A DNA stretch of 64,000 bases, taken from Diprion similis (Eukaryota > Arthropoda > Insecta > Hymenoptera > Diprionidae). This document shows, piece by piece, positions 9,896-33,205 of the stretch. Position numbers and translations under genes: made by a program. The DNA lies in contig NC_060113.1 in the NCBI RefSeq assembly GCF_021155765.1, positions 10,307,001-10,371,000 of the forward strand, read 5' to 3'. Position 1 is the stretch's first letter; every line of letters begins with the position of its first letter. Under the pieces are notes generated by a model. It had not been told where the DNA came from, did no database searches, and was given only the letters and a program-made list of their open reading frames with translations.

Positions 9896-12717
9896 CGGCA
9901 GCATGCACTATATCACCGTTTTCCGGTTCTACCCACCCTCGACTATGACGTCTTGATCGGTACCGACCTTCAAAGACGGCTTGACCTCCGAATCTACCTG
10001 AATGGGCACGTACTCCATCCTGAGGGATGTGATTCAACCGTGTTCACCGTACGGGACACCAGACACCCAGAGGGTCTAGCCACCGCGGCACTACACGAGC
10101 AGAAACAGCTCCAACAATTTCTGGACAGGGAACTGCCCAGATTCGACTCCGTCAATGGTCCGACTCCCTTGGCTACACACCGTATCCGACTAAGAACCGA
10201 CCAGCCGAGAAAACAAAGGTACCGCCCTAGAAACCCGGCGATGCAAGAGATCATCGATACCGAGGTTCAGAAGATGCTTTCGGAGGGAATAATCGAACTC
10301 TCCGACAGCCCTTGGAGCTCTCCAGTGGTAATCGCCAAGAAAAAGGACGGGAAACCAAGATTCTGCATTGACTACCGGAAGGTCAATGAGGTCACGGAAC
10401 GAGATGCATATCCCCTGCCACAGGTAAACGCCACCCTCGACAAACTAAGAGGAGCCCGGTACCTAACAACTATTGACCTCAAAAACGGGTACTGGCAGGT
10501 CCCTCTAACAGATCAGAGCAAGAAAGTTACCGCCTTTACCGTACCGGGGAGGGGACTGCTTCAATTCACCGTAATGCCTTTTGGGCTCCATTCCGCCCCC
10601 GCTACTTTCCAACGACTCCTCGACCGAGTCATTGGACCTGAGATGGAGCCACACGCTTTCACCTACCTCGACGACATTATCATTATAAGTCAAACATTCG
10701 AGGACCACCTGCAACACCTCCGCGAAGTGTTTCGCCGATTACGGAACGCAAACCTCCGGATGAATCCAGAGAAATGCCATTTCTGCGTTCCCCGCCTTCG
10801 GTACCTTGGCCACGTAATCGATGAGCGCGGGATCCGTACCGACCCCGAAAAACTCGAGGCGATAAAAGAGATGAATCCACCGACCAGCACCCGGGAACTC
10901 CGCCGATTCCTGGGACTCATCTCATGGTATCGCCGCTTCATACCAAACGTAGCTACCGTCACCAGCCCGCTAAACGAGCTGCTCAAAAAGCGGACCAAGT
11001 GGCGCTGGAAGACACCCCAAGAAGAGGCCTTCCAGCAATTGAAGGTCCACCTCACGACGACACCGATCTTGGCTTGCCCTGACTTCAACAAACCCTTCAC
11101 CCTTCAGACCGACGCCAGCGCCACCGGACTGGGCGCAGTCCTGACGCAACAGGAGGGTGAAGAAGAGCGCGTTATAGCTTATGCAAGTCGGACTCTCAAC
11201 AACGCCGAGAGGAATTATTCCGTAACTGAAAAAGAATGCCTCGCCGTGGTCTGGGGAATACGAAAGCTGCGCGCATACCTGGAAGGGTACAAATTCACCG
11301 TTCTTACCGACCACCAGTCTCTCAAGTGGTTACAGAAATTAGATACCCCTTCCGGCCGACTCGCACGATGGGCACTCGAACTCCAACAATACGAGTTTAA
11401 GGTGAACTACCGCAAAGGGGGGGAAAACCTCGTAGCTGACGCGCTATCAAGAAACAGCCTCCTCGCCCTGCACCGACCAGTACAATGTAAATGGTACAAG
11501 GAACCATACCGGACCACCAGGAATAACCCTGACGCTAATGCAGATTATTGCATAAGAGACGGCAAACTATACCGACACATCCTCCACACACTAGACTATA
11601 ACGACACCAGCCCAGAGAAAGAATGGAAGAGATGCGTTCCCAAGGAGCTACGGCCGCACGTACTGCGAGAAAGCCACGATGAACCAACCGCGGGACATCT
11701 AGGTGTCGCCAAAACCCTCAGTAGGCTCGCCCGAAATTATTACTGGCCAGGCATGCTGAGGGAGGCTACCCAGTACGTGCGAACGTGCACCAGTTGTCAG
11801 AAGCACAAGGCAATGCAACAAGCCACAGCCGGGCAGATGCACGCAACACCGGTTTCGACTCCATGGGAGCACATATCCGTGGACCTTGTCGGCCCATTAC
11901 CACGGTCGAAAGCGGGGCACTCTACCCTGCTTGTCCTCCAAGACCGCTTCACAAAATGGGTCGAACTACGGCCATTCCGTACGGCAACCGCCGCCACCGT
12001 AACCCGTGCCGTACGTGAATTGGCTATACTCCAACACGGATGTCCGAATACCGTCACCAGCGATAACGGGAAGCAATTCGTTAGCAACGAATTCCAGGGG
12101 ATGCTGCAACAGTTCGGCATCAGCTACCGCCGTACCCCCCCGTACACGCCGCAGTGTAATCCAGTAGAGCGCGTCAACCGGGTGATAAAGACTATGGTCA
12201 GGCAGTACATTAAAAAAACACAAAAGACCTGGGACGAACACTTATCCGAGTTCGCCTTCGCCTATAATACGTCTAAGCATGATACCACTGGGTACTCGCC
12301 TGCCTATCTGAACTATGGACGCGAACTCCCCATCCCCGGGGGGGGGGGGGGGTACAGAAGAGCAAGAATGGACTTCCCCTAGAGTGCCGACATAAACGGC
12401 TCCGGGAAGCCTTCGAGTTCGTCCGCATCAACCTGGCCCGTGCGTTTCAAACACAACAGCGGTATTACAACCTGAGGCACCGCGATTGGCGTCTGCAGAC
12501 CGGACAGTATGTGTGGAGGAAAACACACATACTGTCCAACAAAGCCGCAAATAGAAACGCCAAACTTGAACCGAGGTATGACGGGCCGTACCGGGTACAC
12601 AAAATTGTATCACCCGTTATCGTCGATCTGCAAGCAACAAACGGAAAAATCATAAGAAACATCCATGTGCGGGACCTGAAACTGTATGTCCATGAAACAA
12701 ATGACACGCAACAGTGA
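9896..12717 (+). pseudogene. pol: G1 pol (protease tail, RT, RNase H, integrase) with a G-run frameshift
   Basis: The open frame starts after a stop at 9893 and enters at the protease C-terminus (DYDVLIG). RT follows with FCIDYRK and YLDD at 10664. RNase H has TDAS near 11107. Integrase has an H2C2 finger near 11690-11800 and D, D, E residues near 11882, 12062 and 12165. The frame breaks at a run of 15 G (12338-12352), and a stop follows at 12380. The integrase C-terminal region continues without stops in another frame from 12352 to 12717 (WRLQTGQYVW, RYDGPYRV). One base of homopolymer error or real slippage explains this. No start codon is visible because the upstream protease and gag are missing. 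Confidence 0.88.
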
Positions 12718-12817
12718 ACAATTTACTATATAAGCACTTACCGAGGCCTGAGATAATCAGTTATATCTGGGGATTGACCGAGATACAACTTGTAAAAAAA
12801 AAAAAAAAAAAAACAAC

Positions 12818-13285
12818 ATGGAACGTAAAGCAACAAGGCCAGTGCTATACATCCCGGCCGTCAGACCACCGACGGCCGAGGTAGATGGCCCGAGGAGGCC
12901 GGCCATCGTCCCGAACACCCGGACGTTGGCCGACCGACCGAGACCACCAGCTACAGCACCGACACCAGAGTTAAAGGTCATCAAGGCGCCGCTGATGAGC
13001 CGGTACCGAGGGACGCTCCGAATCCTGACCACCCCTCGACCAGCAAGAACCACCCCCATCCGCACCGCCGTCCACCAGCGGACACAGCCGGCTACCAATT
13101 CTGGGTACTCGACCGGCCAACCCGTCCCATCAAGGCTGACAGCCTGCCACCAGCTGCCCGACGGCGGGGAGGTAGAGATCCTGGTCGGGACCCGGAAATG
13201 GCGTCATCACCGGCACGGGGTGGTGCAGGTCATCCGTTTGGACCGGACCGGCAACATAACGTTCATCAGCACCCCCAAACCGTAA
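12818..13285 (+). CDS. hypothetical Pro/Arg-rich 155-aa protein downstream of G1 pol
   Basis: This complete ATG-to-stop frame lies between G1 pol and the polypurine tract, directly after a run of 19 A (12794-12812). The N-terminal two thirds are rich in proline, arginine and threonine. The C-terminal third is better ordered, with alternating hydrophobic and charged residues (GGEVEILVGTRKW). I recognise no domain, transmembrane segment or signal peptide, so it is not an ordinary envelope. Its position is that of an accessory ORF of a gypsy element. GC-rich sequence can keep such frames open by chance, so whether it is expressed is uncertain. Confidence 0.45.
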   Translation: MERKATRPVLYIPAVRPPTAEVDGPRRPAIVPNTRTLADRPRPPATAPTPELKVIKAPLMSRYRGTLRILTTPRPARTTPIRTAVHQRTQPATNSGYSTGQPVPSRLTACHQLPDGGEVEILVGTRKWRHHRHGVVQVIRLDRTGNITFISTPKP

Positions 13286-13337
13286 GCCTCAAATCACCAC
13301 CCAACACCCGTCTGTATAGCGTAAAATCACGCTTCCC

Positions 13338-13352
13338 GAAGGAGGAGGGGAG
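13338..13352 (+). other. G1 polypurine tract
   Basis: Fifteen purines, gaaggaggaggggag, lie immediately before the TGTGACG start of the 3' LTR. This is where plus-strand DNA priming occurs in LTR retrotransposons. Confidence 0.85.
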
Positions 13353-13814
13353 TGTGACGAGGCAATCAGCAGTCGGGCCGAACACCTGTTCACCCGTTAA
13401 CCGATTCCTGAAATCAACCCGCTGCCGCCGCCTCGTCACTAGGCCCCAAACCCTTCGGGCCGCGCGCGACCCCGCGAGCCGCACGCAACCCCTAAGGGCC
13501 CTAAGTGCCCGCCAGGCACGCGCGCTGCTCGCATCAAGGGTTCCGCGAGCTAACCCTTATGGAGGGCCGTTTGGCCCATTGTAAAGACAGTCTCTGCTAC
13601 ACCAGGCTCAGACTCATCCAGGTAACAGGCGCGACTGTTATCCCGTAGTTGAAAGTGCGAATAGATTGTGCTAGCCGCATATATCTATATCACACCATAG
13701 AATCACCTGTCCGGCCTTCCGCCGAAATATATACACCGTATATATATATTTCAGATATACATATATATATATATTATTATATTTATATATAGATATATAT
13801 ATATATATATATAT
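13353..13814 (+). repeat. G1 3' LTR, first part
   Basis: It repeats the 5' LTR (7664 onward) and ends in an AT-rich stretch with (AT)n, where G2 has inserted. It continues after G2 at 21452. The two copies differ at a handful of sites over ~350 bp and diverge in the AT tract. Confidence 0.85.
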
Positions 13815-14098
13815 TGTTACAAAGGGTAAAATCACCCGCTTTACCCCCTTTTCTAATGATCTAGTAGTCAGCATGTGACGCAAGAAAACTAAGTCTTCTT
13901 ATGTCATCAAATGAATAAGGTTGCTGCGTCAACCGCTATTATTGTAAAAACAGATCTGTTTCGGACTTTGAGCTGATAACACGTTCTTTACCCCAAATAC
14001 AATTTTCTCAAAGCATATTTCTCATTAAGCGCCTTTTAATTGCTCACCTAACTAAGCTTCTTACCCTCGTTTTACTCGTTACGCTAAAAAGTGTAACA
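13815..14098 (+). repeat. G2 5' LTR
   Basis: 284 bp, starting TGTTACA and ending TGTAACA, matching 21168-21451 with about nine substitutions. TG...CA ends and short inverted termini are typical of LTRs. It lies against an (AT)n tract. Confidence 0.95.
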
Positions 14099-14099
14099 C

Positions 14100-14119
14100 T
14101 GGTGTCAGAATCGGGATTT
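14100..14119 (+). other. G2 primer-binding site, tRNA-Leu type
   Basis: One base after the LTR the sequence reads tggtgtcagaatcgggattt. This is complementary to the 3' end expected of an animal tRNA-Leu (CCA plus acceptor and T arm). The tRNA identity is from general knowledge of tRNA-Leu acceptor stems and was not searched. Confidence 0.75.
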
Positions 14120-14162: not shown

Positions 14163-15617
14163 ATGAGTGTCAGTCGTTCGACCCGCTCATGCCGCCGGGA
14201 AAGTTGTGGAGATAGCCCCTCACTGAGAGGAGACCTACAAGTTCCCGAGCCAACTTTTGCGGCTCCAGAAGCTGCACCGACGGTGACCCCTGTTACAACA
14301 CCTTCGACGTCCACCGTCACCGCTTTAGACCTTCTGAAGGTCCTTCAGGCTCAACAGGAAGCAGCTGAGAGACAACGAGAAGCCGCTGAACGACAACGTG
14401 AAGCAGCTGAATGTCATCAGCAGCATCTGATGGATCTTCTACGGGGACAACAAGAGGCTCAGACACGTTCGGAAGAACGGTTCCATGATCTATTTACTAC
14501 GACGATGTCCACCTTCCAGTCGTTACACCAGTCTGCAGCCACACCTCAAAATTCTCCTGTCCTCACGCCTCATCCTTCTCCTCGCCAGGTCTTTTCGGAT
14601 CAGGCTCCCCAGGATTCAAGGTCTGTCCCTTTTATTAGAGAACTTGACTGTTCTCCGATTTCGAGACCTAGAATAATAACCGAGACCTACTTTCCCGAGC
14701 CACCATCAAATGCTCAACCTCATTTCCCACAATCAAATCAAATAGATAATCAGAGAGTATTCCGAGTCCCCTCTCAAACATGTGAAAAACCTATCTGTGC
14801 GTTAAAACCGCCTATTTTTGACGGAAAAATTCCGTGGGCAGAATATGAAAGACAATTTAATACAATTGCTAGACATAATCAATGGGACTCCGCCATGAAA
14901 GTTCATAGCCTTGCCTCTTGTCTTAGAACGCCAGCTTCGAACGTATTGACAGCTTTGTCAGAAGAAGAAATTTCTGACTTCGAAAAGCTCAGCTCCGCGT
15001 TAAAATTAAGATACGGTAATGATCATTTGACAAAATTATATACTGCTCAATTACAAACTAGGAGACCAGGACGAGACGAAGACCTTGCCTCTCTCGGACA
15101 AGACATAGAGCGACTGTCGCGAATAGCTTTGCCAGACCACGAACCGTCACGTAATATTTTAGCGACACAAGCTTTTTTAAACGCTATTAACGACCCGGAA
15201 GTTAAAATGGCCGTTGGAACGTCGGGTTTAACTTCCTTACGAGAGGCAATGGCCAAAGCTCTCGAGGTGGAGGCCATGCGAAAACAATATTTTGGAGCGG
15301 GCAAACTCCGCCAAGTACAGGTGGATAATAACACCTCTACAGAAAAGAGAGGTTGTCGCTCGGAAGAGACCGAGTCTCATAACCCGAAAAATAATAAAAA
15401 TTACAATAATAATAGAAATTTTAAAGATAAGAATAGTCGCGGTTCTTCTCAGAACCACATTAGAAGACCTCAGTACGCCAATGAGAGAGTAGACAATAGG
15501 TTTACTACCCTCACTTGCTTATTTTGCAACCAAAAAGGCCATGACGCCAATCACTGCTTCGCGTTAAAACGCAGAGCTCAAATTCAAACGCTAATAATTG
15601 GCGAAATAGTAAAGTAG
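14163..15617 (+). CDS. gag: G2 Gag polyprotein
   Basis: The first ATG, at 14163, opens a 484-codon frame. The N-terminal third is Pro/Thr/Ser-rich. It is followed by a glutamine- and glutamate-rich coiled coil near residues 60-105 built on tandem EAAERQR heptads. A Gag capsid-like region has PIFDGK and WDSAMKVHSL. A CCHC zinc knuckle, C-x2-C-x4-H-x4-C, lies at about 15523-15567. The frame stops at 15615. Just downstream, another frame stays open from about 15575 to a TAG at 15680 that sits on a slippery site. The original gag therefore probably ended there, and this copy has a 1-nt lesion between the knuckle and 15615. Gag packages the element RNA into virus-like particles. Confidence 0.87.
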   Translation: MSVSRSTRSCRRESCGDSPSLRGDLQVPEPTFAAPEAAPTVTPVTTPSTSTVTALDLLKVLQAQQEAAERQREAAERQREAAECHQQHLMDLLRGQQEAQTRSEERFHDLFTTTMSTFQSLHQSAATPQNSPVLTPHPSPRQVFSDQAPQDSRSVPFIRELDCSPISRPRIITETYFPEPPSNAQPHFPQSNQIDNQRVFRVPSQTCEKPICALKPPIFDGKIPWAEYERQFNTIARHNQWDSAMKVHSLASCLRTPASNVLTALSEEEISDFEKLSSALKLRYGNDHLTKLYTAQLQTRRPGRDEDLASLGQDIERLSRIALPDHEPSRNILATQAFLNAINDPEVKMAVGTSGLTSLREAMAKALEVEAMRKQYFGAGKLRQVQVDNNTSTEKRGCRSEETESHNPKNNKNYNNNRNFKDKNSRGSSQNHIRRPQYANERVDNRFTTLTCLFCNQKGHDANHCFALKRRAQIQTLIIGEIVK

Positions 15618-15645: not shown

Positions 15646-18600
15646 TCCCGACACCTCGACCATGGCTATCTCAAAAAACTAGATTCAGATGATTTAGGAG
15701 GGCGAAAATCATCGCAGGTTGTTAGAGTAGAAAGCCCTTTTGCGACTCAGTTTTTACTAAGGAGTTTAAGACAGTCTGGTCTTTACGCACGCGGAACTGT
15801 CAATGGCGTTGACTGCCTCTGGGTAATTGATACCGGAGCAGAGGTAACCGTTGTTCGGTCGGATCTTTTAAAATCTGACGACCAGACTGTTCCCTCTTTA
15901 TCTTTGCGAACAGCCACTGGAGAGACGACCCCGGTTTTGGGAGAGGTTAGCGTGCAGATTAACCTCTTCGGATGTATCGACTCTCCACACAAGGTTTTTG
16001 TCGCAGATATCGAGGATGAAGGTATTTTGGGTTTAGATTTCCTCACAGCTCACGATTGCGTGATTTCCACCAAGAGGAATTCTCTGACGTCTAACAGCCG
16101 CGAAATCCCTCTCTGCTCGAAGAAAAGAAGAGTGTACTGGACTCCTCCAAGAATACGAGAAGTAGAACTCTCCAAAGACAATCATCAAAATCTGCTCCCT
16201 TCACATCTAGAAAATCTTTTTGAAAAATCGTCGACCACGCTGGGTTTACAACAGAAGGAATCCTTTAAATCTGTTTTATTTAAGTACGCAGATTCTTTTG
16301 CAGTTAACAGCGGAGACAAGGGGAGATGTACGTCGGTAAAACATAAAATCGACGTCGGAAACAATCCTCCAATTAAACAAGCTCCCCGGAGACTCGCTCT
16401 CAACGGCAGAGAAGAGGTGAAGAAACTCGTTGAAGATATGCTGACCAACGACGTAATCGAGCCTTCTTCCAGTCCCTGGACTTCTCCGATCGTCCTGGTC
16501 AACAAAAAGGACGGCTCCAAGCGATTTTGCATAGACTACAGAAAGCTGAACGACATAACCAAGAAGGACTCCTATCCTCTCCCCAGAATCGACGAAACGC
16601 TCGATCTGATTGCTGGCGCGACCTGGTTTAGTACCATTGATCCTCAGAGTGGCTATTGGCAGGTTCAGATGGATCCCCTGGACAAGGAAAAGACAGCTTT
16701 CGTCACAGGACTAGGAGGATTATGGCAATTTAAGGTAATGCCTTTTGGCTTAAGTAACGCCCCGGCTACCTTTGAACGGATGATGGAGACTGTTCTCCAA
16801 GGACTCACAGGAAAAATTTGCCTCGTTTATTTGGACGACATAATCGTTTTCGGGAAAGACTTTGAAGAAGAAGTGTACCACCTCGAACAAGTCTTCTCCA
16901 GGTTAAAACAAGCAGGGCTAAAGATGAGTCCAAAGAAATGCCATCTGTTCCAGAAAGAAGTCAGCTTCCTCGGTCACATAGTCTCCGCTGAAGGAGTGAA
17001 GACCGATCCCTCCAAGATCGAGAAGGTCTCTGCTTGGCCGACACCGACGAACAAAGAGCAAGTTCAGAGCTTTTTGGGTCTCTGCACTTACTACAGAAGA
17101 TTTGTAAAAGGTGTCGCCACGATAGCCAAACCCCTCCATCGTCTCACAGGAATCAAGATTCCATTCGATTGGACTCCAGAATGCGAAGAAGCCTTCAAGA
17201 AATTGAAAGAAAATCTTACTTCTTCCCCGATTTTAGCCTATCCAGAGGTCGAACTTCCTTTTATTTTAGATACAGACGCCTCTTTGTCAGGGATAGGTGG
17301 AGTCTTGTCACAGATTCAGGAAGGTCAGGAGAGAGCGATTAGCTATTACAGCAGAGTCCTTAGTAAAACCGAGAGGAACTATTGTGTAACTCGTAGAGAA
17401 CTCTTAGCTGTTGTTAAAACCGTAGTCCACTTTCATCATTATTTGTACGGAAGGAAATTCTTGATTAGAACAGACCATGCTTCTTTAAGGTGGTTACTTT
17501 CGTTTAAATCCCCCGAAGGTCAGGTAGCTAGGTGGATTGAGAGGCTCGGACAGTACGATTTCGAAATTCGTCATCGAGCAGGTTTACAACATGGAAACGC
17601 TGACGCTCTTTCTCGAAGACCCTGCGAAGAAACGACAGATTGTAGGCAATGTACTCGCCTTAAAAAATACAGAGATCCTCCTCCTACAATACGGAAGATT
17701 TCTCTTGGAGAAAACCTCGAAGATTGGAAAAGATCTCAACAAGAAGATTCTACTCTGTCTCAGGTTAAATCTTGGAAAGAAACACAAACTCGCCCAGACT
17801 GGCAAGAAATATCCTCAGCTGAGTCTGACGTCAAAGTTCACTGGGCTCAATGGGACTCTATTCTTTTAATAGACGGAATATTATACCGCAAATGGGAATC
17901 CGCAGACTTGAAAGAGATCAAGTGGCAATTTTTGGTTCCCAGAAATCGAGTTCCAGAAATTCTTGCTCTTTACCACGATTCTCCTGCAGGTGGACACTTT
18001 GCCTGGAATAAAACTTTAGGCAAGATACGCGATCGTCATTTTTGGCCACGATGTCGTGCCGACGTAGAAGACTGGTGTCGGAGATGTCAAGTCTTTACGT
18101 CGAAGAAAGGACCTCGAGATAAAGGACAAAGCTCTCTCCAAGTTTACAACGTGGGAGCTCCTTTCGAGAGGGTAGCAATGGATATCCTCGGTCCTCTTCC
18201 TATAACCTACAGTGGGAATAAATACGCCTTAGTCATCGCTGATTATTTTACCAAGTGGCCCGAAGTAATTCCACTCGCCAGTCAGGAAGCCTCTACCGTA
18301 GCTCAGGCGTTCGTAAAAGAATTTATCTGTAGACACGGAGTACCTCTAGAATTACACACCGATCAGGGCCGAAATTTTGAGTCAAGCTTAATGAAAGAAG
18401 TTACTCAAATTTTAGGGGTTAGAAAAACTCGTACTACTCCCCTCCATCCTCAGTCTGACGGCATGATAGAACGTCTGAATAGGACTTTACTCCAATATTT
18501 GTCGTCCTTCGTAGAGCAGAATCAGAGAGATTGGGACACCTGGATTCCTTTTTTCCTCCTGTCTTATAGATCTGCGATTCACGAGACGACAAAACAGACG

Positions 18601-19068
18601 CCCGCTTGTATGCTTACGGGGAGAAATCTTCGACTCCCGTCAGATTTAGAGAAAGGCCCTGTTCCCGTGCAAACTCAACCTCAGACAGATTATGCCTCTG
18701 ATTTACAACAACGCCTAGAAGAAATTCATAATTTTGCAAGGGAAAGAATTTCTATGGCTTCAGATAAATTAAAAGCTCGCTACGATATACGAGCTAGAGA
18801 TTTAAAATATAATCCCGGAGATTCTGTCTGGCTTTTCCAACCTAGAAGACAGAAAGGAAAATGTCCAAAACTCCAACGAAACTGGGAAGGTCCATATTTA
18901 ATAGTTAACCGGATCAACGATGTCGTTTACAGGATCCGAAAAACGCCTCACTCTAAAGAAAAGGTCGTACACCTGGACCGTCTAGCTTCGTTCGAGGAAC
19001 ACACTCGAACGGAATCACCCGGACCTGGAACATCCTCCCAGGTTAGACCACCTTTGAATCAACCCTGA
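15646..19068 (+). CDS. pol: G2 Pol polyprotein (protease, RT, RNase H, integrase)
   Basis: This uninterrupted frame of about 1140 codons has no early ATG and lies in the -1 frame relative to the terminal gag frame, so it should be made as Gag-Pol. Protease has DTGAE at 15829. RT has FCIDYRKLN and YLDD at 16828. RNase H has DTDAS near 17270. Integrase has an H2C2 finger near 17970-18090 and the catalytic residues in MDILGPLP, TDQGRNF and DGMIERLN. The C-terminus has a GPY-type module (NWEGPYLIV). No chromodomain is seen. All catalytic motifs are intact, so this copy looks nearly competent apart from the gag lesion upstream. Confidence 0.94.
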   Translation, partial: SRHLDHGYLKKLDSDDLGGRKSSQVVRVESPFATQFLLRSLRQSGLYARGTVNGVDCLWVIDTGAEVTVVRSDLLKSDDQTVPSLSLRTATGETTPVLGEVSVQINLFGCIDSPHKVFVADIEDEGILGLDFLTAHDCVISTKRNSLTSNSREIPLCSKKRRVYWTPPRIREVELSKDNHQNLLPSHLENLFEKSSTTLGLQQKESFKSVLFKYADSFAVNSGDKGRCTSVKHKIDVGNNPPIKQAPRRLALNGREEVKKLVEDMLTNDVIEPSSSPWTSPIVLVNKKDGSKRFCIDYRKLNDITKKDSYPLPRIDETLDLIAGATWFSTIDPQSGYWQVQMDPLDKEKTAFVTGLGGLWQFKVMPFGLSNAPATFERMMETVLQGLTGKICLVYLDDIIVFGKDFEEEVYHLEQVFSRLKQAGLKMSPKKCHLFQKEVSFLGHIVSAEGVKTDPSKIEKVSAWPTPTNKEQVQSFLGLCTYYRRFVKGVATIAKPLHRLTGIKIPFDWTPECEEAFKKLKENLTSSPILAYPEVELPFILDTDASLSGIGGVLSQIQEGQERAISYYSRVLSKTERNYCVTRRELLAVVKTVVHFHHYLYGRKFLIRTDHASLRWLLSFKSPEGQVARWIERLGQYDFEIRHRAGLQHGNADALSRRPCEETTDCRQCTRLKKYRDPPPTIRKISLGENLEDWKRSQQEDSTLSQVKSWKETQTRPDWQEISSAESDVKVHWAQWDSILLIDGILYRKWESADLKEIKWQFLVPRNRVPEILALYHDSPAGGHFAWNKTLGKIRDRHFWPRCRADVEDWCRRCQVFTSKKGPRDKGQSSLQVYNVGAPFERVAMDILGPLPITYSGNKYALVIADYFTKWPEVIPLASQEASTVAQAFVKEFICRHGVPLELHTDQGRNFESSLMKEVTQILGVRKTRTTPLHPQSDGMIERLNRTLLQYLSSFVEQNQRDWDTWIPFFLLSYRSAIHETTKQTPACMLTGRNLRLPSDLEKGPVPVQTQPQTDYASDLQQRLEEIHNFARERISMASDKLKARYDIRARDLKYNPGDSVWLFQPRRQKGKCPKLQRNWEGPYLIVNRINDVVYRIRKTPHSKEKVVHLDRLASFEEHTRTESPGPGTSSQVRPPLNQP
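15673..15679 (+). promoter_or_regulatory. -1 ribosomal frameshift site, A-AAA-AAC
   Basis: The heptamer aaaaaac is read tcA-AAA-AAC-TAG in the frame that continues gag. Slipping back one base gives AAA-CTA-GAT, exactly the pol frame. X-XXY-YYZ heptamers of this type are classic retroviral -1 frameshift signals, and the gag stop follows directly. I did not fold the downstream RNA. Confidence 0.75.
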
Positions 19069-19090
19069 GAAAAGTAAAGAAACTTCGAGT

Positions 19091-19105
19091 CTTCTTGTTT
19101 TCTAG
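19091..19105 (+). promoter_or_regulatory. candidate 3' splice site before the kinase ORF
   Basis: The sequence cttcttgttttctag is a pyrimidine tract ending in AG, placed exactly where the kinase frame opens (after TAG at 19103-19105). A matching donor-like GTGAGT lies at 14134-14139 between the primer site and the gag ATG, as in retroviral leaders. Together they suggest a spliced subgenomic mRNA for the kinase, as for env in errantiviruses. This is inference from motifs only. Confidence 0.5.
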
Positions 19106-19782
19106 TCTTTGATTGATTGGGAACATAACCTTCCCTTCGGAATTTCACTCCATAAGAAGAAGTCACTTTCTATTATCATCGAAGGGAATATCGGATGCGG
19201 GAAGACAACCTTTACTAAAAGATTCTTGTCGGACCCTCAGGTTTGCACCCTATTAGAACCCCTCGATCAGTACCGTGATGTTGCCGGAGTCAACTTATTA
19301 CAATTGATGTATGAAGACCCAAATAGATATTGCTACCAGTTCCAGCATCACGTTCAACAAGTTATGTACGATAGACATCTTCTTTTAACCTCTCGGCCTG
19401 TCAAAATTATGGAAAGGTCGATGTTTAGCGGCGATTGTTTTATCGAAACTCATCGCAGGTTAGGAAATCTTCGAGATTTCGAGGCTCATCTACTCAGAAA
19501 AAATTCCGCTCTTCTCATTCAAGCGTTCCAACTCGGAGTAGATTTAATAGTTTATTTGCGAGTTTCCCCAGAAACCTCTTTTGTTCGGATTAATTCTCGT
19601 GCACGCAAGGAAGAAACAGAGATTCCTCTGCAATTGCTTAGAACTATTCATGAAGTTCATGAAGATTGGTTGGAGGCATTTTTTCTTCCTTACCTGCCCC
19701 CGTGATAGTTATGGATGCAGAGAATACGACTGAACAGATCTATTTAGATTTTACAGAAAGACTAATCTCCAATCTCTACTAA
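19106..19782 (+). CDS. deoxynucleoside kinase carried by a gypsy retrotransposon
   Basis: The product should phosphorylate deoxynucleosides to monophosphates using ATP. Numbering from the TTG at 19109: P-loop GNIGCGKT at residues 26-33; LEPL at 49-52; GVNLLQLMY at 60-68; FQ at 78-79 in the position of the base-contacting Gln; MERS at 101-104 (catalytic Glu-Arg); lid RARKEE at 164-169. This is the TK2/dCK/insect dNK family pattern. Residue 55 is Tyr where insect dNK usually has Trp. The frame ends at 19703 after a C5 run, but the family-like C-terminus (VIVMDAE) follows in the frame starting at 19702 and stops at 19780. One missing C explains this, and total length would be about 225 residues, normal for the family. 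No ATG precedes the P-loop, so a spliced leader or a non-AUG start is needed. Confidence 0.92.
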
Positions 19783-19838: not shown

Positions 19839-20301
19839 TTAAATATGGGATAATTCCATGATTTTTTTTATCGAATCTTTAACCTCCTCACAAGATTCAC
19901 AAATGTTAGTATTTCTTTCCAAGGTGATTAGTTCCGCATCACAATCCATACATTTTGGTCCATCTCCTCCAAAAGTGATATAAATACATAGTTCTTTAAT
20001 TTCTTCTATTGGAACTTCGAAATGGAAACTATAAAAAAAAAAAAAAATTCGAAGTATTGAAAGATGAAGAATCCTTATTCTTTCGAGAATTTGTCACCAA
20101 GACTTACAATCTTAAGAAGCAGCGTCGGCACCTTATGCCGCATTCCCTCCGAACATGAAAAGCATTCAGTTGTCCACATTTTAATTTAGCCCATTCTTCT
20201 GCGAATTTGGTTTCTATCATCTCAGCAGAAATTTCGTTGAAATCGGGAATTGAAAACTTTTTTACTAAAATAGCGGCGTTAATGAAATTATGTCTCGACA
20301 T
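19839..20301 (-). CDS. antisense, spliced, cysteine-rich zinc-binding-like protein in G2
   Basis: Exon 1 runs from ATG at 20301 to 20108. Exon 2 runs from 20028 to the stop at 19839. Between them is a 79-nt intron with GTAAGT donor and a T-rich tract ending TATAG. The 194-nt and 190-nt exons join in frame as 127 codons. Exon 1 ends with a cysteine cluster (CGIRCRRC). Exon 2 has CMDC and CESC about 15 residues apart, like a zinc ribbon, then a short acidic helix. AATAAA signals on this strand follow the stop near 19810-19830. The 3' end faces the kinase gene about 57 bp away. I do not recognise the family. The intron lies antisense to the retroelement RNA, so it would not be removed during retrotransposition. 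Retroviral antisense genes such as HTLV-1 HBZ are a loose precedent. Confidence 0.62.
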
Positions 20302-20491
20302 TTTTCGGCAGACTGGAGGATTCAAGTTTTGTTTTGAAGAAGCTTTTGTTCTCGCGTCGGTTTTTGTTTTCTTCTAGAAGATTCTTCTCATAAATCGAGT
20401 TTTGTATCAGATTGGCTCTGATTTCTTTGTGGTTTGAACAGAGCCGCGATTGTTATTTTTCATGGTCGATAAGCGATTATTTGATTCTCAC

Positions 20492-21155: not shown

Positions 21156-21167
21156 AGAGGGGAGTAG
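21156..21167 (+). other. G2 polypurine tract
   Basis: The sequence agaggggagtag directly precedes the TGTTACA start of the 3' LTR. It has one interrupting T. Confidence 0.75.
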
Positions 21168-21451
21168 TGTTACAGAGGGTAAAATCACCTGCTTTACCCC
21201 CTTTTCTAATGATCTAGTAGTCGGCATGTGACGCAGGAAAACTAAGTCTTCTCATGTCATCAAATGAATAAGGTTGCTGCGTCAACCGCTATTATTGTAA
21301 AAACAGATCTGTTTCAGACTTTGAGCTGATAACACGTTCTTTACCCCAAATACATTTTTCTCAAAGCATATTTCTCATTTAGCGCCTTTTAATTGCTCAC
21401 CTAACTAAGCTTCTTACCCTCGTTTTACTCGTTACGCTAAAAAGTGTTACA
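21168..21451 (+). repeat. G2 3' LTR
   Basis: 284 bp, matching 13815-14098 with about nine substitutions. It is followed by (AT)n and then a 16-bp inverted copy of its own last bases, giving the palindrome at 21436-21487. Confidence 0.95.
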
Positions 21452-21892: not shown

Positions 21893-23658
21893 CAGCCAGC
21901 GGCAAAATTGAAGATATCTCGATTTAGAGACAAGATAGCCAGGAATTCTACATTTTTTTAACGAATCTCGGCTATTTATGAACCGATCCCGAAATTCTTG
22001 GGTGGGTTCAACAGAGCTCCAGACACTCAGCTGCCCCGCATCAAAAATTCAGAAAAAAGTTGGTATTTGGCTGAGAAACCCTAGATTCTCGTCGGTTCTG
22101 ACCGTTCTGACCAAGTTACGGATGAGACCTCAAATTGCTATACGCGTTTGTCAGAATCGCAAACATTCAGGTCAGACCAGCAGCAAAATTGAAGATATCT
22201 CGATTTAGAGACAAGATAGCCACGAATTCTACATTTTTTTAACGAATCTCGGCTATTCATGAACCGATCCTGGAATTCTTGGGTGGGTTCGACAGAGCTC
22301 CAGACACTCAGCTGCCCCGCACCGAAAATTCAGAAAAAAGTTGGTATTTGGCTGAGAAACCCTAGATTCTTGTCGGTTCTGACCGTTCCTTCCAAGTTAC
22401 GGATGAGATCTCAAATTGCAATGCGCGTTTGTCGGAATCGCAGACATTTAGGTAAGACCAGCAGAAAAATTGAAGATATCTCGATTCGGAGACGAGATAG
22501 CCAGGAATTCTACATTTTTCAACGGATTCTGGCTATCCATGATCGATCCTGAAATTCTTGGGTGGGTTCGATAGACTCGCAAAAACTTAGCTGCCGCGTA
22601 GCGATGAATCAGAAGAAAGTTGGTATTCGATCGAGAAAATCTCGAATCTCGTTGTTCCTGACTTCTCCGATCAAGTCACGATTGGATTCAGAAATTCTTG
22701 GAACCGTTTGTCGGACTTGCGAACACGTAGTTCAGCCCAGCATAAAGAATTGAAGATGTCTCGATTCTGAGACAAGATAGCCAGGAATTCTACATTCTCC
22801 GAAAGATTTCGGCTATTTTTGAATCGAACCTGAAATTCTGGAGTGCGTTTGACAGACTTGCAGACACTTAGCTGATCCGCACCGAAAATTCAGAAAAAAG
22901 TTGGTATTTGGCCGAGGAAATCTCGAGTCTCGTTGTTCCTGACCGTTTTGACCAAGTTACGAGCAAATTCAGAAATTCCTGGATGCGTTTGTCAGACTTG
23001 CGGACACTTAGGTTAGCATAGCAGAAAAATTGAAGATATCTGGACTCTGAGACAAGATAGCCAGGAATTCAAATTTTCCAACGGATTTTGGCCATTTATG
23101 CATCAAACCTGAAATTCTCGCGTGCGTTCGACAGACTTGCAGACACTCAGCTACCCCGCACTGAAAAATCAGAAAAAAGTTGGTATTTGGCCGAGAAAAT
23201 TTTGAATCTCGTCGTTTTTGACCGTTCAGACCAAGACACGATTGAATCCAGAAATTTTTGGATGCGTTTGTCAGACTTGCGAACACTCAGGTCAGCACAG
23301 CAGAAAAATTGAAGATAACTCGATTCTGAGACAAGATAGCCAGAAATTCTCCATTCTTTAACGGATTTCGGCCATTTATGATTCGAACCTGAAATCCTTC
23401 TCTGCTCTAGACAGACTTGCAGACACCCAGCTGCCCCGCACCAAAAAATCCAAAAAAAGTTGGTATTTGGCCGAGAAACCCTTGATTCTTGTCGGTTCTG
23501 ACCATTTCGACCAAGTTCCGAATAAAGCCTGAAATTGTTGGGTTCATTCGTCAGAATTGCTGACACTTAGGTCAGCACAGCCGAAAAATTGGAGATATCT
23601 TGATTTGGAGACAAGATAACCAGGAATTCTACATTTTCCGACGGATTTTGGCTATCTA
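21893..23658. repeat. ~279-bp satellite array, right part, decaying at the edge
   Basis: It resumes after the CAGC duplication exactly where the monomer broke off at 7659. The first two monomers (to about 22530) match the left array closely. From about 22560 to 23658 roughly four more monomers diverge strongly but keep landmarks (gaattctacatt, ttggtatttggc, ttgaagata). The array stops at the LTR beginning at 23659. Confidence 0.9.
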
Positions 23659-25252
23659 TGTGACGTCCCGGAGGGAATGTTCAAAAAAAAACCAAATTTT
23701 TCATCTTTACAGTCGCGACCGACACTTCGCCTAAGAGTCTAAGGAGCCCTGTTTTAATTTGTGGGAGCCGGGCCCCTGCTACGGATTATATTTCACGGTT
23801 TTTTTTTAGAAGAATGAGACTTCATGGAATATAGTAACGTGGAATCTTTTTACTTACTTTTCAAATAATCGTGATAACCTCAGGTATTCTGATTACCTGC
23901 TGTGTGACCTCGCGGACTACTCCGTCTTCGGAATGTGTTGAATTAGGGCTTGTATCTGCCCGTGGAGGAGACTCTTAATTGTGAATTGGATAACTTCGAA
24001 TTTGGGTATTTCACTGACTTCATTTTCTGAATACTTTCTAAGAAATGAATACACTTTGTTTAACTCTGGGCCTGTAACCCATATATTGTTACAAACTCTT
24101 ATAATTAAATCTTATGAATAAATGTACAAGTGATGAAGAAGTTATACGCTAAAGTTAATATTCAAGATCAATATTCAGGAGAACAAATCTTGAAGCGTGT
24201 AGACAGAACAAAACTCGGTGAAAAAGTGACATTTCAAAGTTAAGATTTAAGATTTAAGATTCAAGATTCAAGATTCAAGATTCAAGATTTAAGATTCAAG
24301 ATTCAAGATTTAAGATTTAAGATTCAAGAGAACAAGTTTTATGCGTCCAGACAGATCAGAACTCGGCGAAGAAGTAAGGAGTCCGCGCTCCGCAGTCGAC
24401 CACCTTAGTTGTGTGGTGGGAGGTGCTTTTGCAAATGGCCGCTTTCCTTTCTCCAGTCCGGGGGTTCACGCGTAGCATTCCCACTCCAAGATGGCGGTGG
24501 TCCGAGAGCCTGAGAATGTTTATTCGACTCGGTTCCCGGGCGTCGGGCTATCGCCTTATTGATAGATACTTAATACTTGTTTATCTTGGCATAAACATTT
24601 AAAAATCGTGGCCGCAAGTTTATTCTACTATAAACGTTTATGAATTGTAACCAAAAGTATATTTTAATATAAACGTTCACAAATCGTGACCAAATGTATA
24701 TTTTGATATGAACGCTTAGAAATCGTGTTGTCAATTGTATATTGAAATATACTCATTTACAACGTTCTTGGATGTGGCTTTTCTTTGACGCGAGATACAC
24801 TCGTCTCCTTAGATATTGTTTGATATTATTCTCAATACATTTTCTTAGTTAATATAATGATATCCATTATTGTATGAATATCGAGTATTGTTTCTCGCAA
24901 CTTAGTTATAATTCTAATGATCATATACTTTTTCCCAATAATAATGTTTTTTAGCGGAACTACAAATCTGATATACATATGTGTGTCTATGTATGTTGCA
25001 GAGTGAAGACGGAATAAGATGGTCGCTGACAAATCTCATGAGGCGAGCCATATTCGTATGCATTAGAATAATGTCATTTCTCTTCCATGTTATTTTGTCT
25101 TTTTTATAATGAATAAAATATATAAGCAAAAGTTATTCTGTGTACCTTAGTTAATACACAATATTTCCACCATGGGTAAGAAAGAGAGCATCAGTATTAT
25201 AATGTATATTGTTGTGAAAAATATATATAGGACGTTACCTGGGGACGTCACA
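23659..25252 (-). repeat. GA 3' LTR (1594 bp)
   Basis: In minus orientation it starts TGTGACGTCCCC and ends GGGACGTCACA, an 11-bp near-perfect inverted terminal pair. A polypurine tract precedes it. It holds a 7-bp tandem array (aagattc/aagattt) at about 24242-24330 and three to four ~55-bp repeats at about 24600-24770. No second copy is in the window, so the limits rest on the TG...CA termini, the tract and the satellite junction. Confidence 0.78.
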
Positions 25253-25298: not shown

Positions 25299-27266
25299 TC
25301 ATTGTACTATATCAAGATCTTTCGCTCGCTTTTGCGCTCTTTCTTCCAATTTTCTTAATTCTATGTCAGAATTCATTACTTCATAAACTCGGATAGGCTG
25401 TGTTGGTGAAGGACAGGAGGTTTGTTTAATGTTTTCCTGATCGTTTGACACAGTTTCGGTCGTAGATTTATTAATTTTACGATGACTTAAATGCATTAAC
25501 AGATGAGTTATAGAGTCCCATAATGCTGCTATTAAATGAAAACTCCACCCGTACGCGGCATGAAGTGTATAACCATGTACACAAGTGTCAATAAGAAATT
25601 TTAAAAGTGACCATATGGCCCACAATCCCCAAATTCCTCCAATTATACTTCCAAATGTTGTGAAACCTGAGAATAGCTTGCGTGCCGTTGATTCTGCAAT
25701 TTTAGATAACGTCTTTTCGTCGAATAGATTGTACATATTAATTGAACCTGAGTTTATGTTCTCGCCTCGCGCTCCTCTTGAGATTGTGTCCAGTAGCACG
25801 GGTTTCTCAACCGGAAACATGATGTGGTCCCTCAATTTTTTCAATTCCTTTTCTGTGTAAATCCCGCTCGTTCCAAGTGGTCCGGGGCTGGTGTATTTTC
25901 ATTTCATTGACGTCAAAGGCTTTAGTCTCTGTGGTATTTTACTGACTTTGTGTCCTCTACTTTAAACATAGGTGGTACGATTTCGTTACAATTTCCTGAA
26001 ATTCCTGCTTTAACAATAATTCTTGATTTGGTTCATAGGAATATACTCTTGTTTTGGTATCTAACTGGTAAGTCGTTATAACATCCTTCGATCTTTCTAA
26101 ACTCAACTTCCACTGGTATGCATTTCATAATGTATGTTTACTTCTCCAGCGACTGTAGCGAAGTATCCTGGTCCTTTCATCAAGTTATATGCAAAGTAGT
26201 CTGGCGATATTTCAGCTAAATTTAATGCATTTTTTAACACTTGTTGTTCTAATTTACATTTTTGTTCAATTACGTCTCGATATAAATTTGTCGTCTGTGT
26301 TCGTATATGTTTTTCTACATAAATAAATTTAGAGTTTATGTATGAAAACATGTCGATGTTTGATACTGCTAATCTCGTTCGCTGTTTGAACGTTTCAGTT
26401 GGATTTGTTTCGAAAATATATAATCTTGGGTGTACCGTATTGATGATGCGGTACCCGCAAACGTTGGTTCTTGATTTTTTCATTGAAGCGAGAGTCGTTT
26501 CTTCTGTTTCCAAGGAGTAAATTGTAGGTGAATTTGTTGCATTCATTCTGTTTGCATATCCTGGATATAAGACATCGTAGTTATCGAATTTACATTCGTC
26601 GAATGGCATGGTGGTCCAATATGTGTGTCCGCCGTCTTCATCGATGCAATGTCCGTCGGCGAAGGGGCATACTGTTCCGCCTTTTAAAATCATCTGATTC
26701 CTGGAAATCTTGACATCTGCAGTATAAGATTGGGTTGAAATCTTAATCATAGCTTGCACCACGGCCTTTTCCTATTGTCCGTAGCCGTCATTATAGTATT
26801 CGCCTTAGCAGGTTCCGTCTGACGTCAGGCTTCCCGCTAAGGTAGCGTCGCGTAGCGTCGTTGCATTAACTGGAATTTCCACAAGATTGGTTTTTGTGCC
26901 TACAGCAATTGTTCCGGAGCGGTGCAGTAGTTCGCATGCTTCTCTTGATACTCGAGGGAGGTAGGCCTTCCTTCCGCCATCGGTTACCGAATTGTGTGAA
27001 AATGATCCGCATATGTACACCGTCCGATCTATTTCCACTTTACATTGTATGACATTTGTCTGCTTATATTCCGTCAACTGCAGCAACTGTATATAAGTTT
27101 TTTCTGTCTGTGTCTGTTGGGGGTCTATATCGGACTCGTCTATCTCCAATAAACTAATAGTTGTTACGTTTAAGGCTGCTCCGCCGCAGTCATATCCAAT
27201 GAGGCTGAGCGCTCCATTGTTCCATAATAGGATGATGGTGATGGTTACCACGAATTTTACCACCAT
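25299..27266 (-). pseudogene. chuvirus-like glycoprotein in env position, broken
   Basis: Three same-strand pieces, 27266-26805, 26762-26103 and 25844-25299, make up a class III-type fusion glycoprotein. The first begins with a hydrophobic signal peptide followed by the family start motif (IGYDCGG). The second has the conserved Cys-rich GTVC...HC...TYW region. The third has a long hydrophobic stretch near 25560-25690 that would anchor it in the membrane, then a charged tail. Pieces one and two are in one frame, separated by two in-frame stops (26805 and near 26766). Between pieces two and three (about 26102-25845) there is at least one frameshift. The family call rests on recognition of chuvirus G-like sequences known as insertions and retroelement envelopes in insects. 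This copy cannot encode a complete glycoprotein. Confidence 0.8.
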
Positions 27267-30535: not shown

Positions 30536-31399
30536 TCACTTAAGATTACTTCTTGCCTTCTTCAGTTTGTCCATGTGGTAAACTCGGTTCTTACCACATA
30601 TGGATAGCTTAACGTTATTATTAGGTAATATCTCCAAAACTTCATACGGGCCTGTATATTGGTCTCCTAATTTACCTTTATGAGGTTCGTTTAGTAAAAA
30701 TACTTCGTCTTTAGGTTTTAATTGCAATGGTCTTATCCTTTTACCGTAATAGAATTTATATTTATTCTTTGCCTGGACAAGGTTCTTTCCCGCTTGAGTT
30801 TGGAGCTCGCGCAGTTTTTCACACAAAGTGATCAAATATTCTTCATACGCCCTATCCGTCACAGGTTCAATTGACGCATAGTTTGAAGGGACTCTGGCTT
30901 TTGTGCCAAAAACTAGCTCGTATAGCGTGTATCTAGTACCTTCATGGGTACTAGTGTTGTATGAAAACATTGCTAATTCTATCCACTCGTCCCAATCGGA
31001 TTTATTACTTACGAATTGTTTGAGATATTCTACTAATACGTGATGTGATCTTTCTATCGATCCATTAGACTGTGGGTGAAATGCTGTAGTTTTATTTTGA
31101 GTTATGCGGAGACTTTTTGCTATTGCTTTCATTAGGGAGCTTGTTAAATTTGATCCTTGATCCGTTAGGATATGTCTAGGCGCACCGGGCGCACCATAGA
31201 TACAAATAAAATTTTTAATTAAAGCGTCTGCGATAGCCACAGAATCGGTTTCTTTAAGAGGTATTGCTAAAGAATATTTTGTAAGTAAGTCTTGAATTGT
31301 TAATATATAATTATTATTCATTCTTGTCATAGGCAGAGGGCCTACGATGTCCATTGAAATTTTCTCAAAAGCTGATTCTGGGGTATCAGTAATTACCAT
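30536..31399 (-). CDS. pol: GA integrase
   Basis: This is a 287-codon part of pol. The D, D, E catalytic core is visible in MDIVGPLP, LTDQGSNL and NGSIERSHH. The C-terminal part has a GPY-type module (YTGPYEVLEIL). The N-terminal H2C2 finger lies just upstream (31400-31560), where an in-frame stop near 31489 interrupts it. Integrase joins element DNA to the host genome. The sequence groups with the gypsy/17.6 type by its motifs. Confidence 0.85.
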   Translation of the reverse strand: MVITDTPESAFEKISMDIVGPLPMTRMNNNYILTIQDLLTKYSLAIPLKETDSVAIADALIKNFICIYGAPGAPRHILTDQGSNLTSSLMKAIAKSLRITQNKTTAFHPQSNGSIERSHHVLVEYLKQFVSNKSDWDEWIELAMFSYNTSTHEGTRYTLYELVFGTKARVPSNYASIEPVTDRAYEEYLITLCEKLRELQTQAGKNLVQAKNKYKFYYGKRIRPLQLKPKDEVFLLNEPHKGKLGDQYTGPYEVLEILPNNNVKLSICGKNRVYHMDKLKKARSNLK

Positions 31400-31653
31400 A
31401 GGTTGCTTATGCTTTACACGAGTGAGTTTTTTTGTTGCACACTCGAAATATTTACTTATATATTCTTGTATCTGGCGCTTCGAATTTGGTCATGAATATT
31501 TTTGTCTGATTCTAAGGTAAGTTTCAGTAACACCCTTATGTCCGCCTATAGCTGATTCATGATTTTCTCGTATTAAGTCGTTTCTATTGAGTCGTTGTGA
31601 ATAGTAAGCGTACACGGACAGTCGTTAAGCGTTGCTTTCATTCGACTGAGTAT

Positions 31654-32493
31654 TTATTTCCGTAATATATTGTCAATGAAATTAGTTCTATAAATTGCTA
31701 CTTCTGGAAGCTGAATCTGCATGATGACGTCCAATAGGGACGCCATTGCTTCGATGAATATTTCTGGATCTACTTTTCGTTTGCTCGATTCCTTAATTGG
31801 CAGAGCTATAATCTTCCTATTTTCTCTTTCTATCAATCTTGCTCTACCCAACGTTAAATCTTCGAATTTCCATGTTCTGTATTTAGTCAGCATGTCGTGT
31901 GCTCCGCGATCAACAGGTTTGCCCTGCTGTGTTATAAAGAAAGCTACATTACCTTTATGCATTGACAGTTTTTCTTCGCTCCTTGTGACCTTGAGTTCCG
32001 AGTCCGTTTGTAACTTATAAGGTCTTGAACCGGGTTCTAAAATTTCATCGGTGTCGTCTATGTCACTATCAATGTGTAAAAGTTCGTCATTGTCTGATTC
32101 GGAATCTGTATTCTCTTCCTGATCACTCACATCTGAATTATCCTGATTTTCTATAGGATTATCAACCTCATTATCTTTGAATGTTACGTTTAAATTTTCA
32201 GGTAACCTGGGGAGGGAAGCTCCGCTGGTTTCTGCCTCTTCTACCTGATCGGGTACCTCTGCTATTGTCTCGAGGTCTGTGCTTCGATTAAACGGTCGTA
32301 CCTCCTCAAAGGGGGTGATCGTCATGTCACCTAAATCATCGGCCAAAGTAAGTTCGGCTTCTTTATCTAAATTTTCTTCTGGGTTTGGTAAAGAATAAAT
32401 TTGAATTTTGAAAGAATATTTAAAGATTTTGTTAATTAATTTATTAACCGTTTTCCATGACAACATGTCTAGACCGCTACCTATTTTGGGCAT
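31654..32493 (-). CDS. GA pol insert between RNase H and integrase
   Basis: A 279-codon frame has a long acidic Glu/Asp-rich linker in its middle. Its C-terminal half contains VAFFITQQGKP and KIIALPIKE, then an amphipathic helical stretch. Similar FIT...LPIKE regions occur between RNase H and integrase in many arthropod gypsy elements as I recall them, but I cannot name a biochemical function. It is on the pol strand between the two enzymes and is probably part of the polyprotein, with frame breaks on both sides in this copy. Confidence 0.6.
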   Translation of the reverse strand: MPKIGSGLDMLSWKTVNKLINKIFKYSFKIQIYSLPNPEENLDKEAELTLADDLGDMTITPFEEVRPFNRSTDLETIAEVPDQVEEAETSGASLPRLPENLNVTFKDNEVDNPIENQDNSDVSDQEENTDSESDNDELLHIDSDIDDTDEILEPGSRPYKLQTDSELKVTRSEEKLSMHKGNVAFFITQQGKPVDRGAHDMLTKYRTWKFEDLTLGRARLIERENRKIIALPIKESSKRKVDPEIFIEAMASLLDVIMQIQLPEVAIYRTNFIDNILRK

Positions 32494-32749
32494 TGCGAGT
32501 CGATAATCATTATTTTCGATTAATCATTATTGAAATTTTCATCTACAGTGAATAAATCTCCTGTCAATTCTTCTATTACTGGCGGTTGTTCAAAAATATC
32601 TTCATTAGTTGTTTCTAATTCGTTTGTCGTTTCTATCTCCATAGTTTGTATAGTTGCAACTCCGGGTTCTAATGGATTCGGATCGTTTTCGTCTATTGGG
32701 TTTCTGGATAGCGCGTCGGCATTCGTGTTAGCGCGTCCTTCTCTTTACT

Positions 32750-33172: not shown

Positions 33173-33205
33173 TAAATTTGTGAGGGGTTTTGCTAATTTT
33201 GAAAA

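What the first reader, a model, noticed from the sequence alone, without database searches (positions are those of the whole stretch)
19106..19782. A Ty3/gypsy retrotransposon carries a deoxynucleoside kinase
Seen: an ORF with dNK P-loop, EP, FQ, MERS and RARKEE lid motifs lies between an intact pol and the polypurine tract of an element with clear LTRs, primer site and 3% LTR divergence. Known: dUTPase occurs in some retroviruses, and dNKs occur in cells and large DNA viruses. I know of no LTR retrotransposon with a dNK. Inference: salvage phosphorylation could raise dNTP supply for reverse transcription in non-dividing cells.
Basis: partly seen in the sequence, partly recalled or inferred. 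Interest (0 to 1): 0.93.

Follow-up and report, generated by a model that had tools for sequence, protein, structure and literature searches.

The report
Retrotransposon with spliced-on nucleoside kinase
A family of virus-like jumping genes in a pine sawfly carries its own enzyme for recycling DNA building blocks, apparently joined to its copying machinery by RNA splicing, which suggests that it brings a nucleotide-making tool to its own replication.

Summary
The finding holds and goes further. The window's genome matches Diprion similis by two exact contig lengths. A Ty3/gypsy element (LTRs 13815-14098, 21168-21451; 9 of 284 differences) has a PF01712 deoxynucleoside kinase frame directly behind pol; in this copy the frame breaks before its end. 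It is no single capture: 83 kinase rows in the genome, 22 nearly full-length, 14 of 22 without in-frame stops. Five kinase copies have LTR pairs differing at 0-1 of 284 sites. Kinase dN/dS between subfamilies is mostly 0.1-0.25, near that of pol. Element kinases form one clade apart from host-type dNKs. New: pol ends inside a 56-65-nt intron whose donor is in pol phase 0 in 21 of 22 copies, many of them near-identical, and two copies lack exactly this stretch. Splicing most likely yields a Pol-kinase fusion that serves dNTP supply; RNA splicing, activity and packaging are untested. Kinase-decayed and kinase-less relatives exist, so the kinase is not needed in every copy. Five kinase-directed searches of open papers showed no such element.

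The parts
13815..14098 (+). 5' LTR (TGTTAC...GTAACA)
   Evidence: 9 of 284 differences from the 3' LTR
14100..14115 (+). primer binding site; fits the 3' end of tRNA-Leu over 11 bases, then two mismatches
   Evidence: sequence; genome pattern search; ARAGORN named tRNA-Leu in 1 of 4 loci scanned
14163..15617 (+). gag-like ORF with a CCHC-type knuckle near its end (read by eye); no Pfam match
   Evidence: related gag frames in non-autonomous copies L036, L037
15646..19068 (+). pol ORF: protease, RT, RNase H, integrase; its stop TGA (19066-19068) lies inside the proposed intron
19042..19105 (+). proposed 64-nt intron: donor AG|GTTAGA, acceptor TTTTCTAG|; donor at a codon boundary of pol
   Evidence: exactly absent from copies L019 and L025; D. 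similis gene model P0001 joins the matching two sites
19106..19705 (+). deoxynucleoside kinase frame (PF01712), in frame with pol after splicing
19706..19782 (+). C-terminal tail of the kinase, in another frame in this copy; the frame is open to the end in other copies
21156..21167 (+). polypurine tract before the 3' LTR
   Evidence: sequence
21168..21451 (+). 3' LTR

Best explanation
The element is a lineage of Ty3/gypsy LTR retrotransposons that took up a deoxynucleoside kinase long ago and has kept it. Unspliced RNA is the genome and gives Gag and Pol; Pol stops inside a mini-intron. A part of the RNA is spliced at this intron, and the spliced RNA gives Pol with the kinase as a C-terminal domain behind integrase. 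The fusion would be packed into virus-like particles as Pol is, perhaps released by the protease, and phosphorylate deoxynucleosides to dNMPs near the reverse transcriptase, so that cDNA synthesis depends less on the host's dNTP supply. Shown from sequence: many copies, pol-kinase linkage, intron-like anatomy, two copies that lack exactly the intron, purifying selection on the kinase, recent insertions. Inferred: splicing in RNA, the fusion protein, packaging, enzymatic activity, the benefit for reverse transcription.
For: Kinase in the own genome: 83 rows, 3 of them probably host exons; 22 rows reach from residue 1-2 to 189 or beyond, 14 of 22 without in-frame stops. Linkage: of 48 pol C-terminus rows at 55% identity or more, 31 have a kinase match that includes the N-terminal end within 800 nt downstream, 15 only the C-terminal part, 2 none, and those 2 pol matches are cut short. 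An LTR match lies downstream in 16 of 28 loci, at 68-100% identity; 7 further loci (L002-L008) end before the LTR. Intron: of 25 junctions examined, 22 have a donor motif; it is in pol phase 0 in 21 of 22 (L015 has a frame break in pol), and the pol stop lies inside the intron in 21 of 22; ten of the 22 (L001-L009, L012) are near-identical in the intron. Pol and kinase stand in relative frames 1, 2 and 0 in 13, 8 and 3 of 24 copies, yet the spliced joint reads alike. L019 and L025 lack the intron exactly and read straight through; L019 pairs in the kinase tree with L020, which has the intron. P0123, from a dataset without a species name, is one open protein RT-RNase H-integrase-dNK. Gene models P0001 and P0002 of D. 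similis both join the pol donor to the kinase; P0001 uses the acceptor proposed here, P0002 another. Selection: NG86 dN/dS 0.07-0.36 in 103 of 105 pairs; the other two are near 1 with dS below 0.05. Recent activity: LTR pairs of kinase copies L004-L008 differ at 0, 0, 1, 1, 0 of 284, and pol is open over 1140 codons in 4 of these 5. Tree: 9 element kinases plus P0003 apart from 24 host-type dNKs with support 100/100.
Against: No RNA or protein data were available; gene models P0001 and P0002 may be predictions only, and P0002 uses a different acceptor. Fifteen of 48 pol rows have only the C-terminal part of a kinase; in seven such loci read, the remnant carries stops in six or more places between them and the N-terminal half is gone (L029-L035), while pol is open over 1137 codons in 2 of the 15 rows. 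Recent gag-only derivatives keep only a kinase remnant. Three copies on C9 share the broken kinase tail, and the 5' flank of the window copy does not recur at the other two, so a copy with a damaged kinase seems to have multiplied. The P-loop is altered in 5 of 21 kinases and the ERS motif in 3 of 21, one of these in a copy with nearly identical LTRs (L007). So the kinase is not needed in cis each time; it may act in trans or be of use only at times. The donor GTTAGA is weaker than the usual GTRAGT (recalled).
Confidence: 0.66

Rival explanations
1. The kinase is made as a separate protein from a subgenomic RNA in which a 5' leader exon is spliced to the acceptor at 19105/19106, as env is made in retroviruses and errantiviruses (recalled), rather than as a Pol fusion.
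For: The kinase sits where env sits in such elements; it has no ATG before the P-loop and an acceptor with a pyrimidine run.
Against: A donor at the end of pol, in phase with the kinase, is kept in 21 of 22 copies; two copies have lost just the short intron; P0123 is continuous with pol. A leader donor was not looked for, so both RNAs could exist.
Confidence: 0.18
2. The kinase domain is kept for something other than catalysis, for instance as a C-terminal arm of integrase for targeting or assembly.
For: It would be fused to the integrase end. The dUTPase-related gene of bovine immunodeficiency virus is reported as critical for replication despite lacking dUTPase activity (title of PMC4261571, seen in the listing).
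Against: The P-loop is intact in 16, EP in 20 and ERS in 18 of 21 kinases, as expected for an enzyme under selection; the arginine lid varies more.
Confidence: 0.1
3. The kinase is a passenger: an old capture that is copied along without benefit.
For: Relatives with a decayed or mostly lost kinase multiply.
Against: dN/dS mostly 0.1-0.25 over dS up to about 2.4 between subfamilies; a passenger would drift towards 1.
Confidence: 0.04
4. Pol and kinase are joined by frameshifting or stop-codon readthrough instead of splicing.
For: The distance between pol stop and kinase frame is short.
Against: The relative frame differs among copies (13 in frame 1, 8 in frame 2, 3 in frame 0 of 24), a further stop lies directly before the kinase frame in the window copy, and the two intron-less copies break exactly at AG|GT and AG|.
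Confidence: 0.02

Closest known systems
dUTPase of betaretroviruses, non-primate lentiviruses and some LTR retrotransposons (passages of PMC4531489, PMC5408684 and PMC6431247)
   Same: A nucleotide-metabolism enzyme made as part of a retroelement polyprotein and, in MMTV, found in virions.
   Different: Different fold and reaction (dUTP hydrolysis, not deoxynucleoside phosphorylation); placed at gag-pro or within pol, in betaretroviruses reached by frameshifting, not at the end of Pol by splicing.
Bdelloid rotifer LTR retrotransposons with enzymatic ORF3 (GDSL esterase, DEDDy exonuclease; passages of PMC5408684)
   Same: An enzyme taken up behind pol in place of env.
   Different: Other enzymes; the authors report no significant departure from neutrality for their ORF3s within genomes, whereas here the kinase is under strong constraint between subfamilies. 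The word kinase does not occur in the main text.
Orchid Ty3/Gypsy elements with an AlkB-type m6A RNA demethylase (passages of PMC9289625)
   Same: A cell-type enzyme gained by a Ty3/gypsy lineage and reported active in vitro.
   Different: Separate ORF, plant host, RNA demethylase; the word kinase does not occur in the main text.
Insect deoxynucleoside kinase (Drosophila dNK, 1J90)
   Same: Same family, shared catalytic motifs. Of 11 substrate-pocket residues recalled from the literature, 8 are kept.
   Different: Element kinases form their own clade on a long branch. Positions 57, 110 and 118 of the fly enzyme (list recalled, residues read off) are changed, so the preferred substrate may differ.
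Cer1, a Ty3/gypsy element of C. elegans (start of the abstract of PMC10309623, seen in the listing)
   Same: A Ty3/gypsy element whose genomic RNA carries splice sites and must leave the nucleus unspliced.
   Different: No nucleoside kinase is mentioned in what I saw.

Membership tests
Ty3/gypsy LTR retrotransposon | LTR pair with primer site and polypurine tract | tested here: met
   primer site fits with two mismatches
Ty3/gypsy LTR retrotransposon | pol order protease-RT-RNase H-integrase | tested here: met
   protein 2
Ty3/gypsy LTR retrotransposon | place in an RT tree | not tested
   only protein matches by name (412-like); no RT tree was built
Deoxynucleoside kinase family (PF01712) | profile match above the curated cut-off | tested here: met
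   135.6 bits, cut-off 27
Deoxynucleoside kinase family (PF01712) | P-loop, EP, ERS and arginine lid | tested here: met
   all present in the window copy; over 21 copies P-loop intact in 16, EP in 20, ERS in 18
Deoxynucleoside kinase family (PF01712) | phosphorylates deoxynucleosides | not testable with these tools
   needs an enzyme assay
Errantivirus or retrovirus with env | env gene between pol and 3' LTR | tested here: not met
   the sense-strand frame behind pol is the kinase; no other sense frame of 80 aa or more before the 3' LTR
Processed pseudogene of the host dNK | near identity to the host gene, single insertion | tested here: not met
   likely host exons 38-53% identical; many copies; separate clade

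The most novel reading that the evidence does not exclude
A retroelement lineage, spread beyond one species, controls by splicing of a mini-intron how much of its Pol carries a nucleoside kinase, and so takes its own dNTP salvage enzyme into the particle to copy its genome in cells poor in dNTPs.
Probability: 0.45. Interest if true: 0.9.

Novelty: new variant of a known kind. Interest (0 to 1): 0.85.

Why it matters
Low dNTP supply limits reverse transcription in resting cells, and retroviruses are known to answer it with dUTPase or by removing SAMHD1 (recalled; a review on SAMHD1 came up in the listing). A retroelement that makes deoxynucleotides itself would be a third answer. It would also show Pol gaining a domain through splicing. 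The copies are recent and numerous, so the question can be tested directly with sawfly RNA and a recombinant enzyme.

Tried and rejected
Single-copy artefact: rejected. Host pseudogene: rejected. Duplication of one C9 copy with its surroundings: the 5' flank (window 12800-13700) does not recur near the other two (40 of 49 candidates scored); the 3' flank test says little, as much of it is satellite and only 15 of 2368 candidates were scored. Other hosts: the kinase part of P0123, used against proteins of about 520-1670 aa, found only P0123 itself and P0241, a fusion with an unknown N-terminal part. P0241 and P0123 gave no locus in viral contigs. The codon model in IQ-TREE gave a tree but I found no omega in the part of its output that I read, so pairwise NG86 was used. 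Structure prediction was asked for seven times and the machine was busy each time. The antisense ORFs downstream have no Pfam match above a cut-off. A tRNA search without mismatches found nothing. Papers: five searches were aimed at a kinase in a retroelement. They held 3, 488, 1, 0 and 630 papers, of which 3, 15, 1, 0 and 10 were listed; no title or abstract start listed reports such an element. I read passages of four papers only.

Full report
What is in the window. Between 13815 and 21451 lies a 7.6-kb LTR retrotransposon. Its LTRs are 13815-14098 and 21168-21451 and differ at 9 of 284 sites. Behind the 5' LTR a primer site fits the 3' end of tRNA-Leu over 11 bases and then has two mismatches. 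That tRNA end stands 7 times in the genome; ARAGORN named tRNA-Leu at one of the four loci scanned. A gag-like ORF (14163-15617, no Pfam match) and pol (15646-19068: protease, RT, RNase H, integrase) follow. At 19106-19705 comes a frame with PF01712 at 135.6 bits that aligns with fly dNK over residues 21-189. Copies elsewhere are open to the end.

Which genome. The window's genome has 269 Mb in 60 contigs. Two of its contigs have exactly the lengths of the contigs that bear proteins P0001 and P0002 of Diprion similis (18,130,230; 22,560,868).

Copies. A search with the 199-aa frame gave 83 rows. Three rows on C2 (13551782-13552620; 38-53% identity) are probably exons of the host gene. 22 rows span residues 1-2 to 189 or more, and 14 of the 22 have no stop inside. 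Only 150 of 354 first-look candidates were scored. Of the 48 rows, 31 have a kinase match that includes the N-terminal end within 800 nt downstream, 15 have only the C-terminal part, 2 have none, and both of these stop short in pol. An LTR match lies downstream in 16 of 28 loci, at 68-100% identity, in part over only half of the LTR; L002-L008 end before the LTR, and 5 loci (L017, L019, L020, L026, L027) show none downstream.

The intron. In the window pol ends with a TGA at 19066-19068, and the kinase frame opens at 19106 directly behind a TAG. The stretch 19042-19105 begins GTTAGA after CAG and ends TTTTCTAG. I examined 25 junctions. One (L018) has no pol match and no donor motif. 22 have the donor motif; in 21 of 22 the donor lies at a codon boundary of pol and the pol stop lies inside the intron. 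In the other (L015) a frame break in pol comes first. Ten of the 22 (L001-L009, L012) are near-identical there, so the number of independent cases is smaller. Intron length runs from 56 to 65, and pol and kinase stand in relative frame 1 in 13, 2 in 8 and 0 in 3 of 24 copies; removal of the intron gives a like joint in each. Two copies, L019 and L025, lack the stretch exactly and read from pol into the kinase; they come from different subfamilies (69% and 85% identity to the window kinase). These look like insertions of spliced RNA. Gene models P0001 and P0002 of D. similis join the pol donor to the kinase, P0001 at the same acceptor, P0002 at another; they may be predictions. P0123, from an assembly of unnamed origin, runs from RT to kinase in one open frame that the contig cuts off, so the fusion exists elsewhere, as spliced RNA or without intron.

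Selection and age. Pairwise NG86 on 15 kinases, in-frame stops masked, gave 105 pairs. dN/dS lay between 0.07 and 0.36 in 103 of them, dS up to about 2.4; the two near 1 (L001-L004, L022-L023) have dS below 0.05. In eight chosen pairs of stop-free copies dN/dS was 0.11-0.24, with bootstrap upper limits from 0.20 to 0.58, the highest for the closest pair. For the pol C-terminus five pairs with dS above 0.5 gave 0.13-0.21, and three close pairs 0.09, 0.27 and 0.57. The kinase has thus been under about the same constraint as this part of pol. LTR pairs of 13 elements were compared: window 9 of 284; kinase copies L004-L008 0, 0, 1, 1, 0; one kinase-decayed element 8; six short elements taken as non-autonomous 0 or 1. 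Of these six, two were read in sequence, three have a kinase-remnant row between their LTRs and one was judged by LTR spacing alone. Kinase copies have moved very recently.

Origin. In a tree of 133 rows (quick method; the careful search did not finish) the 15 element rows plus P0003 fall on one side with support 100, and the 15 without P0003 with support 78. In a careful tree of 34 rows the split between 9 element rows plus P0003 and 24 other dNKs, most of them insect or unnamed, has support 100/100 and is in all 200 bootstrap trees. The branch is long, the root is unknown, and the donor cannot be named. P0003, from a short contig, may be another element kinase; its surroundings are not known to me.

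Results against a simple story. One subfamily has a decayed or half-deleted kinase but open pol in some copies. Short gag-only derivatives with a kinase remnant are recent and numerous. The window copy and two others on C9 share the broken kinase tail, and the 5' flank of the window copy does not recur at the others. Five of 21 kinases have an altered P-loop and 3 of 21 an altered ERS motif, among them L007, whose LTRs differ at one site. So the kinase can be absent or damaged in a copy that moves, which fits help in trans but also a conditional benefit.

Mechanism. The best reading is a Pol-kinase polyprotein made from spliced RNA, packed with Pol and acting on deoxynucleosides close to the reverse transcriptase. 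The anatomy, the intron-less copies and the constraint are shown from sequence; RNA splicing, the protein, its packaging, its activity and its benefit are inferred. It would work like retroviral dUTPase in that a nucleotide enzyme rides in the polyprotein (passages of PMC4531489), but it is another enzyme, in another place, reached in another way.

Novelty. Domain gains by LTR retrotransposons are known, including dUTPase, GDSL esterase, DEDDy exonuclease, AlkB and the many domains of Burro (passages read). Ten paper searches were made, five of them aimed at a kinase; none of the listings shows an LTR retrotransposon with a nucleoside kinase. The library holds open papers only, and long result lists were seen only at their top. 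I call it a new variant of a known kind.

Noticed in passing
window 19839-20373 (-): Two antisense ORFs (84 and 89 aa), one with a CxxC...CxxC zinc-ribbon-like motif, between kinase and 3' LTR; the region is present in only part of the copies and has no Pfam match above a cut-off.
   Followed up: partly
L036, L037 (C2 and C6): Non-autonomous elements of about 3.5 kb: LTR, gag frame, no pol, kinase remnant, LTR; LTR pairs identical. A gag-only derivative of the kinase element.
   Followed up: partly
protein P0241: 532-aa protein from a public assembly (source ena) with a dNK behind about 300 residues without a Pfam match above a cut-off; possibly another mobile element with a kinase.
   Followed up: partly
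window 25299-25898 (-): Fragment matching a Monjiviricetes fusion glycoprotein (PF24664).
   Followed up: no
window 9896-12382; 30563-33793 (-); 37947-38480 (-); 47792-50123: Further gypsy-type pol regions in the same window.
   Followed up: no
window 21904-23660: Satellite with a 280-bp period, also on C3, C5, C13 and elsewhere on C9.
   Followed up: no
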